This document shows positions 25,802 through 29,795 of a stretch of 64,000 nucleotides of DNA, piece by piece; within the stretch, counting starts at the first letter, position 1; every line of letters begins with the position of its first letter. The stretch covers positions 5,341,001 through 5,405,000 of the forward strand of contig NC_134029.1 of assembly GCF_964204645.1 (NCBI RefSeq), written 5' to 3'. Made by a program: the position numbers and the translations under genes. This DNA comes from Tubulanus polymorphus. Lineage: Eukaryota > Nemertea > Palaeonemertea > Tubulaniformes > Tubulanidae. The notes under the pieces were generated by a model. That model was given only the letters and a program-made list of their open reading frames with translations. It had not been told where the DNA came from and searched no databases.

Positions 25802-28800
25802 ATGAGTTTGTGGGTGGATAAACACAGGCCGACCAATCTGAAGAAACTAGACTATCACAAGGAACAAGCAGATTTATTCAAAAAGCTGGTAAGTACGAAT
25901 AGAAACTGATTTAATCGATTTTAATGCGCAATTTCTATGCTATTTCCTGGAAATCGGGTTCGAATCCCATTTTTCTAAATTTCGTTCCTTTGGTTTGGCG
26001 TTGCTATATTTATGAACTATAGCTAAGAATGAACCAGTTACATGAACAAAAAAGGTTTTATATGGTTTTAGGTTAGTTCTGGTGATTTCCCACATCTTTT
26101 GGTTTATGGTCCGAGTGGAGCCGGAAAGAAAACAAGGATTATGTGCCTGCTGCGAGAACTATACGGACCCGGTGTCGAAAAACTACGCTTAGAAAATCAC
26201 AACTTTACAACTCCGTCGAAAAAGAAATTAGAAATAACCGCATTAGCGAGTAACCATCATATCGAAGTTAATCCCAGGTAGGCCTTAAAATTTATCTCAA
26301 GAATCAAATAAATCACAACATTTTCTCATTATTTCATGAATATCACTTTTATGACTCATTTAAACCATCTTCCCCCAAGAAGTTAAAATTAAATGGCAGC
26401 AAATTAAATGTTTAGCTTTCACAGTACTATGATATCTGTTTTAAATTTGTTTATGTCAAGTGTAATATTTATTTCAGCGATGTTGGTCACAATGATCGAG
26501 TTGTCATACAGGAAATTCTGAAATCAGTCGCTCAGAACAATCCATTAGACAGTTCTGGCCATAATAACTTTAAAGGTAGGGCTTGCTGTTAATTCAACTT
26601 CTTAATGGCACCATAACTGAAATTCGATAAGATCAAAAGGAGATTCATAGAGTATGTAGACAAAATTTACCAATTTGCAGCCCATCTTGTGTGCGCAATC
26701 TTAAAATTATGTACATGAACATTGGAAGAAGTGGCCAATTTTTTGCTTACATACATAACATGAATGGCCCCAAATGAATTGGAAATGTTCCTTGTCATTA
26801 AAGTTACTATCTGATTATCTGCCACCCTCGGATTTCCGCCCAAATTTTGTTTGAATTTCTGATTACAAAAATTTAGTTCATTTTCAACTCAGTCAGCCAT
26901 CTCTGGCCCGTATCACATATTACAAGTCGAAATAGTGCACGCCACTGATGCCCTGTTTATCTCATATTTATAGTGGTTGTGTTGACAGAAGTCGATCATT
27001 TAAGTAAAGATGCTCAACACGCTTTACGACGCACGATGGAGAAATACATGTCGACTTGTCGCTTAATACTCGTCTGTAATTCAACCAGTAAAGTTATCCC
27101 CGCCATTAAAAGCCGATGTTTAGGAATTCGAGTTCCAGCCCCGACATTCGATGAGGCAAGTGTCCTGAGCTGCCCTAGACCTTGTACCGTATATCAGAGA
27201 GTTTGACTGTTGGAAAGGTTTCCTAGGAAGCAAACGAAATTAACTTCAACGTTTTGTTGTAATTTCATTTTTCAGATCGCCTCAATTCTGCAAGCTACCT
27301 GTAAGAAAGAGAGTTTAACGTTACCGATGGAATTAGCCGAGAAGATTTCCAAACAAAGCAATCGGAATTTACGCCGCGCGCTTCTCATGTGTGAAGCCTG
27401 TAAAGTACAGCAGTAAGTATCTATGTAATTCTGACCTATTCCCTTAAACCTTACTGACCAAAGTTGCAAGTAGGAGGAAAAATCTCATTTGTTATTTTAG
27501 ATATCCGTTTGACGCCGAACAGGATGTTTCTGAACCGGATTGGGAGATATTTCTACGAGAGACCGCTAAACTCATAGTCGAACAACAAACTCCAAAGCGG
27601 TCAGTGTCATTAGCCCACTTGGGACTTTAGTCCCAGCGGGCTATTGCGTTCACTTTTCGTCCGTCGTCCGTCCGTAGACGGAATCCAGTTATTTTGGGAA
27701 GTTTTGAAGACGCTTCAAGGTAATGTCTTGATATTTGGGTTACACATGTATCTACCCTAGACACATCTTCAGCCCAAAAACTGGCCCTGTCAGAATCAAG
27801 ATGGCCGACTAGCAGCCATTGTTGTTCGCCAAAATCAGCACTTTTTACACATTTTTGAACTTTTTGAGGGAAATTTTGAAGACGCTTTGATCAATTACCT
27901 TGGTCTTTCGGATATATGTGAATCCCCCCAGGGCCCATCAACATAACAAAAATTGGGTCGGTCGGACTCGAGATGGCCGTCCTATGACCTTTTTAGTGCC
28001 CAAAAATGTTAATTTTGGCCCGAATTCTGAGTCCTGTAGCTTCCTACTGGTTTGCCATTTCTCATTGCAATTTGTGATGGGTATTCTATGGAAAGGGATG
28101 TTTTATACCTGAGACAGGTATTTTTCATCAGCCAATTATGACGCAATTGGCGGCCATCTTTGTGTCACCAGTACTCATTCGTAAGTGGGAAAAAGTTTTT
28201 CCACATTATATTGATACCTAAGCGTATTTTGATACCACAATCAATTAGAAAGTTGTAGCTCATAATGCTCTATGATTGTGGTGAGTTTCAAGGTAATTGG
28301 ATTTCGTGTATGGCCACCAGGGGGCGTTGAATAATACAATATCTTAGCATTTCTTTATTATATTCGTACCTATGCATATTTTGTAACCACAATCAATTGG
28401 AAAGTTGTAGCTCATGACATCATCTATGATTGTTGCGAGTTTTAAGGACATTAGTTTTTCTATATGGTCACCAGGGGGCGTTGAATAGTAGAATAACTTA
28501 GTATTTCCTTATTATATTGGTACCTAGGCATATTTCGTTACCATGATCAATTGCAAAGTTGTTGTTCATGACATGTTCTATGATTGTGGTGAGTTTCGAG
28601 GTCATTGGGTTTTGAATATGGTCACCAGGGGGCGATGAATAGTAGAATGACTTAGTATTTCCATATTAAATTGGTAACGAGGCATATTTTGTTATCACAA
28701 TCAATTACAAAATCGTAGCTGCTGACATGTTCTATGATTGTGGTGAGTTTCAAGGTCGTTGGTTTTTGTAAATGGTCACCAGGGGGCGTTGAATATTGAA

Positions 28801-29795
28801 ATTGTTAGATTGTTGAGCATTTGAAACCACTTCCCAAGTGGGCATGGTGTCCCTGGACCCCTAGTTTTTGGTTTCCATTCTGTCTTTCTTCCTATGAGCG
28901 GACAACCCACAATGGCTGAAAAACCATAATACATATAAAGCTTATGTTTACTTCTCTGAGCCATTTTTAAAACTGATTCATATGTTTTAGATGAATTGTA
29001 ATGATTAATCAGTTTTGAAAATGGCTCATAGCAGTTATAATAACCTTTATAGCTTTTCATTCAGTTGTTGGTGGGCTTTTCTCTATGTAAGTTTCGTTCT
29101 CATCAAACTCAGGAGTTAGTGCACATGATTCTGTTTTATATTTTTAGATTATTAGAAGTAAGAGGTCGTCTGTATGAATTGTTAACGCATTGTATTCCAC
29201 CTGATGTTATCATAAAGGTAAGTGTGAAACTGAAGAGTTTATTACACCAGAGAAAATATTTCAGTCCCCTAAAACAGGGTGGCCACTTGCCAGGAAATCA
29301 GGGAAAGTCAGGAATTTTCTTTTTTTCTAAAAAGTCAGGGAATATCATAAAAAAAGTTTAAAAGTCAGGGAAATTTGTTGAGATTGCTAGATCACGTGCA
29401 AAATCAAACAGTTTCCGTCTATATTTTATGTATTTGACTATTAATTGATTGGATTGTAAGCTGATCAAGTGAGGGAAAACAACAACGTGCTTGTCGGGAA
29501 TAGTCGGGGATAACGCGCCAACTGTCATTTAAATAAAAGTGGCCATCCTGTTACAACCTCTGACTTATGCATGGTTTACTGTATAAATGCATGTCTCTCA
29601 TTTAAGGGTTTACTGACTGAACTGATTCAGAATTGCGACGGTCAGTTGAAAGCTGAAATCACTCAACACGCCGCATTCTACGAACACAGATTGAACCTCG
29701 GTCAGAAACCGATATTTCACATCGAAGCTTTCGTCGCTAAATTCATGTCAATTTACAAACGCTTCTTGGAAGAAGGATTCGCGGATTTCTTTTGA
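25802..29795 (+). CDS. RFC3: Replication factor C subunit 3 (clamp-loader ATPase)
   Basis: Subunit of the RFC complex that loads the PCNA sliding clamp onto primed DNA in the nucleus. Eight phase-consistent exons give 355 residues, against 356 in human: 25802-25888, 26072-26277, 26478-26575, 26974-27155, 27276-27412, 27501-27599, 29148-29217, 29607-29795. It begins [10 protein letters not shown]. Walker A is GPSGAGKKT; the sensor region is [15 protein letters not shown] and the conserved [19 protein letters not shown] block follows the Walker B region, which reads LTEVD. The C-terminal collar ends [23 protein letters not shown]. The fourth intron starts with GC (GATGAG|gcaagt), because any nearby GT would shift the frame. 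AATAAA at 29872-29877 is the likely polyadenylation signal. Identity is secure. Confidence 0.97.
27613..28843. mobile_element. Helitron-like non-autonomous element with tandem core
   Basis: It is bounded by the 12-bp inverted pair GCCCACTTGGGA (27613-27624) and TCCCAAGTGGGC (28832-28843). Read on the minus strand, the 27610s end has a TGGGACT-AA-AGTCCCA hairpin followed by AGTGGGCTAA and a T in the flank. That matches a Helitron 3' end (hairpin, then CTRR, inserted before T). The middle holds four 154-bp tandem units. Short terminal inverted repeats plus a tandem core recall the pearl elements of bivalves and Helentron-derived repeats. No coding sequence. It lies in the RFC3 intron between 27600 and 29147. 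Helitron assignment is likely but not proven; the TC start was not found. Confidence 0.65.
28190..28800. repeat. 154-bp tandem array, four units, each with a CTCF-like motif
   Basis: Four units share the blocks 'accacaatcaatt', 'aagttgtagctcatgac', 'tctatgattgtggtgagttt' and 'caccagggggcg'. The motif TGGYCACCAGGGGGCGWTG starts at 28311, 28465, 28619 and 28773, exactly 154 bp apart each time. Flanking parts of the units are more diverged than this motif. It forms the core of the Helitron-like element. Confidence 0.9.
29275..29550. mobile_element. hAT-like non-autonomous element
   Basis: The termini CAGGGTGGCCACTT and AAGTGGCCATCCTG pair as inverted repeats at 13 of 14 positions. The interior repeats 'gtcagggaa' several times and has no coding sequence. 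Elements with CAGGGTGGCCACTT ends and 'agtcagggaa' repeats are widespread hAT-type repeats in animals. It is in the last RFC3 intron. Confidence 0.7.

What the first reader, a model, noticed from the sequence alone, without database searches (positions are those of the whole stretch)
28311..28791. Transposon-borne array of four CTCF-like sites at exact 154-bp spacing
Each tandem unit of the Helitron-like element in the RFC3 intron carries TGGYCACCAGGGGGCGWTG, at 28311, 28465, 28619 and 28773. This is very close to the vertebrate CTCF consensus core (CCACCAGGGGGCGC). The motif is better preserved than the rest of the 154-bp units, and the spacing is near nucleosomal. If CTCF binds here, this mobile element would spread ready-made boundary arrays through the genome. 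Mobile elements carrying CTCF sites are known in mammals; I know of no such report for Helitron-like tandem cores in invertebrates.
Basis: partly seen in the sequence, partly recalled or inferred. Interest (0 to 1): 0.82.

Follow-up and report, generated by a model that had tools for sequence, protein, structure and literature searches.

The report
Mobile element carrying CTCF-type site arrays
A short jumping DNA element in an unnamed invertebrate carries up to four well-kept copies of a sequence that looks like the landing site of CTCF, the protein that partitions animal genomes, and such sites occur thousands of times in its genome; whether CTCF really binds them is untested.

Summary
Four TGGYCACCAGGGGGCGWTG sites (28311, 28465, 28619, 28773) are the window's four best CTCF-matrix hits. 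They lie in the 154-bp central repeat of a 1.25-kb non-coding element (27611-28864) in an RFC3 intron. Its anatomy is that of a non-autonomous Helentron (HINE); no autonomous partner was found.

The 268-Mb genome encodes an 11-finger CTCF whose ZF3-5 contact residues equal the human ones. CACCAGGGGGCG occurs 4,676 times (reversed control 4); CTCF-type cores also occur in apparently single-copy DNA. On a tree of 264 units the motif has 0.57 of the base-matched changes, 0.26 on internal branches, lowest of 136 windows. One cruder filter pointed the other way, and young copies differ little.

So the motif seems kept mainly while the element transposes: tip branches show weaker constraint (0.69), and none of 94 sampled units lies in the outer 20% of its chromosome. 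This suits a selfish element selected to carry CTCF sites better than a set of host boundaries.

TE-borne CTCF sites and satellite-like HINE cores are each known; I found no report of the combination.

The parts
27611..28864 (+). Whole HINE-like element (TAGCCC...CCCCTAG, T-rich flanks)
   Evidence: Ends shared, with single-base differences in a few, by 17 other copies aligned with the window copy; BLAST limits in 20 fetched copies
27611..27643 (+). 5' terminal hairpin TAGCCC..GGGACT..AGTCCC..GGGCTA
   Evidence: Fold of the first 45 bases, -20.9 kcal/mol
27613..27624 (+). Left subterminal inverted repeat GCCCACTTGGGA
   Evidence: Longest exact inverted repeat between the ends
28832..28843 (-). 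Right subterminal inverted repeat (TCCCAAGTGGGC on the + strand)
28846..28861 (+). 3' end hairpin before the terminal TAG
   Evidence: Fold of the last 45 bases
28194..28795 (+). Central array of 154-bp units, 3.9 copies
   Evidence: TRF
28311..28329 (+). CTCF-type site 1 (TGGCCACCAGGGGGCGTTG), 25.8 bits
28465..28483 (+). CTCF-type site 2 (TGGTCACCAGGGGGCGTTG), 20.6 bits
28619..28637 (+). CTCF-type site 3 (TGGTCACCAGGGGGCGATG), 21.8 bits
28773..28791 (+). CTCF-type site 4 (TGGTCACCAGGGGGCGTTG), 20.6 bits
27600..29145 (+). Host intron of RFC3, most of which is the element; the element begins 11 bp after the GT
   Evidence: Sequence, reading frames, RFC3 match of the next exon; exact splice sites inferred
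29146..29220 (+). Downstream RFC3 exon
   Evidence: PDB match to Replication factor C subunit 3, E 1.6e-9

Best explanation
The array is the central tandem core of a non-autonomous Helentron (HINE-like) element. Each 154-bp unit carries one site fitted to the host's own CTCF, all pointing the same way. The element lineage has been selected to keep the site (inferred), most simply because CTCF bound to the array keeps the donor copy or its intermediate accessible and resistant to silencing and so helps it to be copied. As a by-product it has seeded thousands of consensus-grade CTCF sites. Shown: anatomy, copy number, a CTCF gene with matching ZF3-5 contact residues, occurrence of the core in DNA outside detected repeats far above the control, and a deficit of motif changes that follows CTCF's degeneracy. 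Inferred: CTCF binding, the benefit to the element, and any effect on chromatin folding.
For: CTCF orthologue at C3:3430379-3431720 (pieces 62% and 52% identical to human; next by E-value 33% over 2-308), 11 fingers, helix residues -1/2/3/6 of ZF3, 4 and 5 identical to human. Matrix scores 20.6-25.8 bits. CACCAGGGGGCG 4,676 versus 4 reversed; 1,528 exact pairs 150-158 bp apart versus 0. CACTAGRTGGCGC 243 versus 0; CACYAGATGGCG 1,486 versus 4, with 22 of 37 sites read lying in other repeats; 22 of 23 tested contexts outside those repeats showed no second copy. Tree built without the motif: ratio 0.57 in all and 0.26 on internal branches, each rank 1 of 136 windows; the 58 windows free of motif and search anchor (all in the 5' part of the unit) give 0.92-1.14 and 0.91-1.24. 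Changes that the matrix does not tolerate 64 observed versus 200 expected, tolerated 67 versus 78; on columns invariant between unit types and outside CpG 37 versus 82.9, and 37 versus 38.1. 14 of 27 internal changes fall at positions 8 and 16, where CTCF takes Y and R. At the motif CpG, TG:CA is 14:26, against 40:27 at other CpGs of the unit (Fisher P 0.017). 187 of 213 units with a fully aligned motif score at least 15 bits.
Against: No binding data. Position 4 is T in three of four window units where human CTCF prefers C. Positions 1-3 and 17, weak in the human matrix, are as constrained as the core, so something beyond the human matrix is also kept. Position 16, with 9 of the 27 internal changes, is part of a CpG and mutable for that reason alone. 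In young copies the difference is small (7/1367 in the motif versus 95/9465 in the rest of the array). On columns invariant between types the raw non-CpG rates are close (3.2% versus 4.0%); the deficit there depends on base matching with only 6 G columns. A filter to rare changes gave ratios of 1.34-1.71; I judge it unsound because recurrent changes saturate. ZF6 and ZF7 helices differ from human at some contact positions. The single-copy test used 62-bp contexts and a search that skips very common words.
Confidence: 0.57

Rival explanations
1. The motif is kept for the element's own machinery (Rep/helicase binding, replication) or for another zinc-finger protein, and its likeness to CTCF is coincidental.
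For: Constraint is strongest on internal branches, i.e. while transposing. Positions 1-3 and 17 are constrained though weak in the human CTCF matrix. Three of 20 fetched copies abut another copy's array about 5-7 bp before the motif (both sides in L026, one side in L013 and L022).
Against: The same core occurs far above the control in DNA with no detected similarity to the element. At least two other repeat groups, with no BLAST similarity to the element, carry CACCAGATGGCG, a variant that CTCF accepts (those copies were found by that word). Lax positions are those of CTCF.
Confidence: 0.18
2. The founder element happened to contain a CTCF-like word; its conservation is an artefact of homogenisation among units and of sampling, and nothing binds.
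For: Units of one element can be homogenised. About half of sampled units no longer have the exact core (114 of 213 do; 18 of 31 exact-anchor units do). Young copies show only a small difference, and the rare-change filter shows none.
Against: Homogenisation does not single out 19 columns: windows free of motif and anchor have ratios 0.92-1.14 for all changes against 0.57. Changes follow CTCF tolerance.
Confidence: 0.14
3. The copies are, in bulk, host-co-opted boundary or loop-anchor arrays.
For: CTCF-type, co-oriented, clustered sites; TE expansion of CTCF sites is reported for mammals (PMC3368268, listing). Tip branches still show some constraint (0.69).
Against: 0 of 94 mildly diverged units and 0 of 30 other young copies on C1-C6 lie in the outer 20% of chromosomes, against 44 of 98 CACTAGRTGGCGC sites, which were not screened for repeats. 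Constraint is weaker on tips than on internal branches. In two echinoderms CTCF motifs at boundaries show no orientation pattern (PMC13317027, passages).
Confidence: 0.11

Closest known systems
HINE elements (non-autonomous Helentrons), incl. oyster Cg_HINE with satellite-like central repeats (PMC4067079, PMC7492417; passages)
   Same: Non-coding, palindromic 12-bp subterminal inverted repeat, 3' palindrome, T-rich target, central tandem repeats of similar length
   Different: Right inverted repeat lies 21 bp from the 3' end (38-60 bp in the mite elements); each unit bears a CTCF-type site, and 'ctcf' has 0 occurrences in the oyster paper; autonomous partner not found
Mammalian retrotransposons that spread CTCF sites (PMC3368268, search listing only)
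   Same: A mobile element multiplies CTCF-consensus sites genome-wide
   Different: Rolling-circle type DNA element, not a retroposon; up to four co-oriented sites per copy; an invertebrate; no binding data here
Placozoan Mutator TIRs carrying the loop-anchor motif (PMC12221973, passages)
   Same: A DNA transposon carries the sequence motif found at chromatin loop anchors
   Different: Non-bilaterians lack CTCF, so another factor must act there; loop anchors were mapped there, not here

Membership tests
HINE (non-autonomous Helentron) | Palindromic subterminal inverted repeats of 12-15 bp, 2-4 nt from the 5' end | tested here: met
   GCCCACTTGGGA 27613-27624, 2 nt from the 5' end, with its complement at 28832-28843; definition from PMC4067079 (passages)
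HINE (non-autonomous Helentron) | Right subterminal repeat 38-60 bp from the 3' end (as given for the mite families) | tested here: not met
   It ends 21 bp from the 3' end. I take the distance as a trait of the mite families and not as defining, and therefore say HINE-like
HINE (non-autonomous Helentron) | Palindrome near the 3' end | tested here: met
   Hairpin 28846-28861, 3 nt from the end; the last 45 bases fold at -10.2 kcal/mol, subterminal repeat included
HINE (non-autonomous Helentron) | Insertion in T-rich DNA, without target-site change | tested here: inconclusive
   16 of 18 aligned copies have at least TT before the 5' end and 18 of 18 have T after CCTAG; no empty sites were compared
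HINE (non-autonomous Helentron) | No coding capacity | tested here: met
   No stop-to-stop frame of 110 aa or more inside 27611-28864
HINE (non-autonomous Helentron) | Autonomous Helentron with the same ends in the genome | tested here: inconclusive
   58 matches to the Helitron Rep family; 5 loci of 10 kb inspected, none shows the element's ends, which may lie outside the stretches
CTCF binding site | Match to the CTCF matrix | tested here: met
   20.6-25.8 bits, best four of the window (matrix recalled)
CTCF binding site | Host has CTCF with the base-contacting fingers | tested here: met
   11-finger orthologue, ZF3-5 contact residues identical; ZF6-7 partly different
CTCF binding site | Occupied by CTCF in cells | not testable with these tools
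   No ChIP, CUT&RUN or ATAC data at hand
Insulator / boundary | Blocks enhancers or anchors loops | not testable with these tools
   Needs Hi-C/Micro-C or reporters

The most novel reading that the evidence does not exclude
A Helentron lineage is under selection to carry a CTCF array as a chromatin shield or opener for its own spread, at least two other repeat groups of the same genome carry CTCF cores too, and together they supply a large share of the consensus-grade CTCF sites of this invertebrate, concentrated in chromosome interiors and thus reshaping where CTCF goes.
Probability: 0.34. Interest if true: 0.82.

Novelty: new variant of a known kind. Interest (0 to 1): 0.62.

Why it matters
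TE-borne CTCF sites are best known from mammals, and the role of CTCF outside vertebrates and flies is unsettled (PMC10658181 and PMC13317027, passages). A compact genome in which one element has planted thousands of consensus-grade sites offers a natural test of what CTCF clusters do in an invertebrate, and of whether selfish elements, and not only hosts, select for architectural-protein sites.

Tried and rejected
Organism: I first suspected Nematostella (268 Mb genome). Rejected: a primer string that I recall as Nematostella EF1b, held by two Nematostella papers (listing), is absent with up to 2 mismatches, and the genome has a CTCF, which non-bilaterians lack (PMC12221973, passage). COX1 was not found in the assembly.

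Host-wide enrichment: CACYAGATGGCG (1,486 versus 4) looked like independent host evidence, but 22 of the 37 sites read fall in two or three repeat groups. I then tested only contexts outside those groups: 22 of 23 had no second copy and one had a weak 48-bp match elsewhere. One of the 23, L035, itself overlaps a 32-bp, 87.5% match to the element, so it is probably an old remnant. The search skips very common words, so 'single copy' is 'none seen'.

Constraint tests: an 'all columns' comparison is inflated by differences between unit types. A filter that removes changes seen in another unit type gave 0.92, and limits to changes in at most 3, 2 or 1 loci gave 1.35, 1.34 and 1.71, i.e. no constraint or the reverse. 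I rejected it because at about 5% divergence changes recur and because the motif has no between-type alternatives to remove. I then used invariant columns (ratio 0.61, locus bootstrap 0.48-0.76, column permutation P 0.01) and a tree built without the motif. The 31-bp search anchor is itself low (0.71) by selection of the sample and cannot be judged.

Rows dropped: one search used 17 of 20 fetched copies plus the window (L007, L015, L020 left out: their 5' parts did not align through). Searches used 165 of 181 units (only types u2-u4). One search used 264 of 297 units, and the 15-bit count rests on 213 of 264 (51 with gaps or missing motif columns set aside); counted as failures, 187 of 264 remain. 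Of the 100 places listed (of 1,300), 60 were fetched; of the 100 (of 7,747). Both samples favour good anchor matches, the latter only C1. One search used 94 of the 100 places and 98 of the 100 (C1-C6 only), and 30 of 39 other full copies.

Autonomous partner: 5 of 58 Rep matches inspected, none with these ends.

Papers: seen as search listings except PMC12221973, PMC4067079, PMC7492417, PMC10658181 and PMC13317027, where I read passages only. 'No report found' rests on the listed parts of six searches: 20 of 333, 15 of 135, 15 of 57, 12 of 25, 12 of 119 and 8 of 32.

Full report
What is there. The four reported sites are real and lie in a 154-bp tandem array, 28194-28795. They are the four best matches to the human CTCF matrix (recalled) in the 64-kb window, 20.6-25.8 bits. 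The array is the core of a 1.25-kb element without long frames, 27611-28864, that fills most of an RFC3 intron.

What the element is. Seventeen other copies share its ends, TAGCCC...CCCCTAG, with single-base differences in a few, set in T-rich DNA. It has a strong 5' hairpin, a 12-bp palindromic repeat near each end in opposite orientation, and a 3' hairpin. This is the anatomy described for HINEs, the non-autonomous Helentrons (PMC4067079, passages), and satellite-like central repeats of 140-180 bp are known in oyster HINEs (PMC7492417, passages). One distance differs, and no autonomous partner was found in the 5 Rep loci inspected out of 58 matches. I therefore call it HINE-like. Three of 20 fetched copies abut another copy's array about 5-7 bp before the motif, on both sides in L026 and on one side in L013 and L022.

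How common. A 25-base stretch of the unit, with up to 3 mismatches, occurs 7,747 times in the 268-Mb assembly, reversed control 0. The 12-mer CACCAGGGGGCG occurs 4,676 times, control 4, with 1,528 exact pairs at 150-158 bp, control 0. Of the first 100 places, all on C1, 65 sit in register with another. Of 20 places fetched because they had no such neighbour in the list, 10 lie in the element and 10 do not by that search.

Does the host have CTCF? Yes. C3:3430379-3431720 matches human CTCF with two pieces 62% and 52% identical; the next place by E-value has 33% over nearly the whole query, and other zinc-finger genes reach 40-53% over short pieces. With a third exon read from the sequence it has 11 fingers. 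The residues at helix positions -1, 2, 3 and 6 of ZF3, ZF4 and ZF5 are identical to human; ZF6 and ZF7 share only some.

Is the core used outside the element? Of the first ten 12-mer places on C1 (0-6.1 Mb), none is covered by an element match. One (L035) overlaps a short remnant-like match, two (L028, L031) were not tested further, and seven showed no second copy. About 0.09 would be expected from the control density. CACTAGRTGGCGC, another CTCF-type variant, occurs 243 times, control 0, and CACYAGATGGCG 1,486 times, control 4. Many of the latter are in other repeats: of 37 sites read, 22 fall in two or three repeat groups, and the other 15 showed no second copy apart from one weak match. So CTCF-type cores are enriched both in apparently single-copy DNA and in several repeat groups. 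The single-copy test used 62-bp contexts and a search that skips very common words.

Is the motif better kept than its surroundings? In 18 young copies the difference is small: 7/1367 versus 95/9465. In units from 60 more diverged loci, on columns invariant between unit types u2-u4 and outside CpG, there are 74 changes against 121 expected, base matched (ratio 0.61, bootstrap 0.48-0.76, column permutation P 0.01); unmatched rates are 3.2% and 4.0%. On a tree of 264 units from 98 loci built without the motif the ratio, outside CpG, is 0.57 overall, 0.69 on tips and 0.26 on internal branches. The motif is the lowest of 136 windows overall and on internal branches, eighth on tips; the 58 windows free of motif and anchor, all in the 5' part of the unit, stay between 0.89 and 1.24. 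A filter to rare changes gave no deficit or an excess, which I attribute to saturation.

Does the pattern look like CTCF? Changes tolerated by the matrix are near expectation (67 versus 78), others are at a third (64 versus 200; on invariant columns outside CpG 37 versus 38.1 and 37 versus 82.9). Internal changes gather at position 8 (5) and 16 (9), where CTCF accepts Y and R, 14 of 27 in all; position 16 is also a CpG, so part of this is mutation. At the motif CpG, change to TG, which CTCF should not accept, and to CA, which it should, is 20 and 17 on tips but 2 and 7 inside the tree (small numbers); summed over units it is 14 and 26, against 40 and 27 at other CpGs. Against a pure human-matrix reading, positions 1-3 and 17 are also kept.

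Where the copies lie. Of 94 mildly diverged units on C1-C6, 88 are in the central half of their chromosome and none in the outer 20%; of 98 CACTAGRTGGCGC sites, not screened for repeats, 34 and 44. Of thirty other young copies on C1-C6, 28 and 0. That these contigs are whole chromosomes is inferred from their sizes. The RFC3 copy, 22% along C5, is outside the central half.

Reading. The evidence fits an element that profits from CTCF while it moves. Once inserted, its sites seem to decay under weaker constraint, and in the sampled copies they stay in chromosome interiors. Spread of ready-made boundaries may follow in single cases, but bulk co-option is not supported. Binding is the missing step.

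Known or new. TE expansion of CTCF sites is known in mammals (PMC3368268, listing), transposon-borne loop-anchor motifs in placozoans (PMC12221973, passages), and satellite-bearing HINEs in oysters. The listed parts of my searches for Helitron or Helentron with CTCF, or CTCF in invertebrate repeats, show no such report by title or abstract start; only open-licence papers are held. I class it as a new variant of a known kind.

Noticed in passing
L107, L109, L110, L111, L114, L116, L139, L142: A repeat group matching itself in both orientations carries CACCAGATGGCG, in L110 as two inverted sites about 37 bp apart; no similarity to the HINE-like element was found.
   Followed up: partly
L115, L119, L120, L125, L132, L133, L135, L136, L146; L122, L134, L143, L144: One or two further repeat groups with CACYAGATGGCG, weakly similar to each other, with no BLAST match to the HINE-like element.
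   Followed up: partly
L003:2166-2186 (intron of the CTCF gene itself): CTCCAGGGGGCGGTTTCATAG, which resembles part of a CTCF core and may be a repeat end, inside the CTCF gene.
   Followed up: no
28234-28243 and 28273-28282, with partly changed equivalents in other units: An inverted repeat ACCACAATCA / TGATTGTGGT inside the unit; one unit (28500-28653) folds into a long hairpin. The TGTGGT core resembles a RUNX site (recalled).
   Followed up: no
27600-27611: The element sits 11 bp behind the inferred RFC3 splice donor; an effect on splicing was not examined.
   Followed up: no
G000 C8:11.3-11.6 Mb and C10:10.9 Mb: Dense clusters of C2H2 zinc-finger matches appeared in the CTCF search, possible repressors of such elements.
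   Followed up: no
G000 C1-C6: The sampled HINE-like units avoid the outer parts of the six largest contigs, 0 of 94 in the outer 20%.
   Followed up: partly
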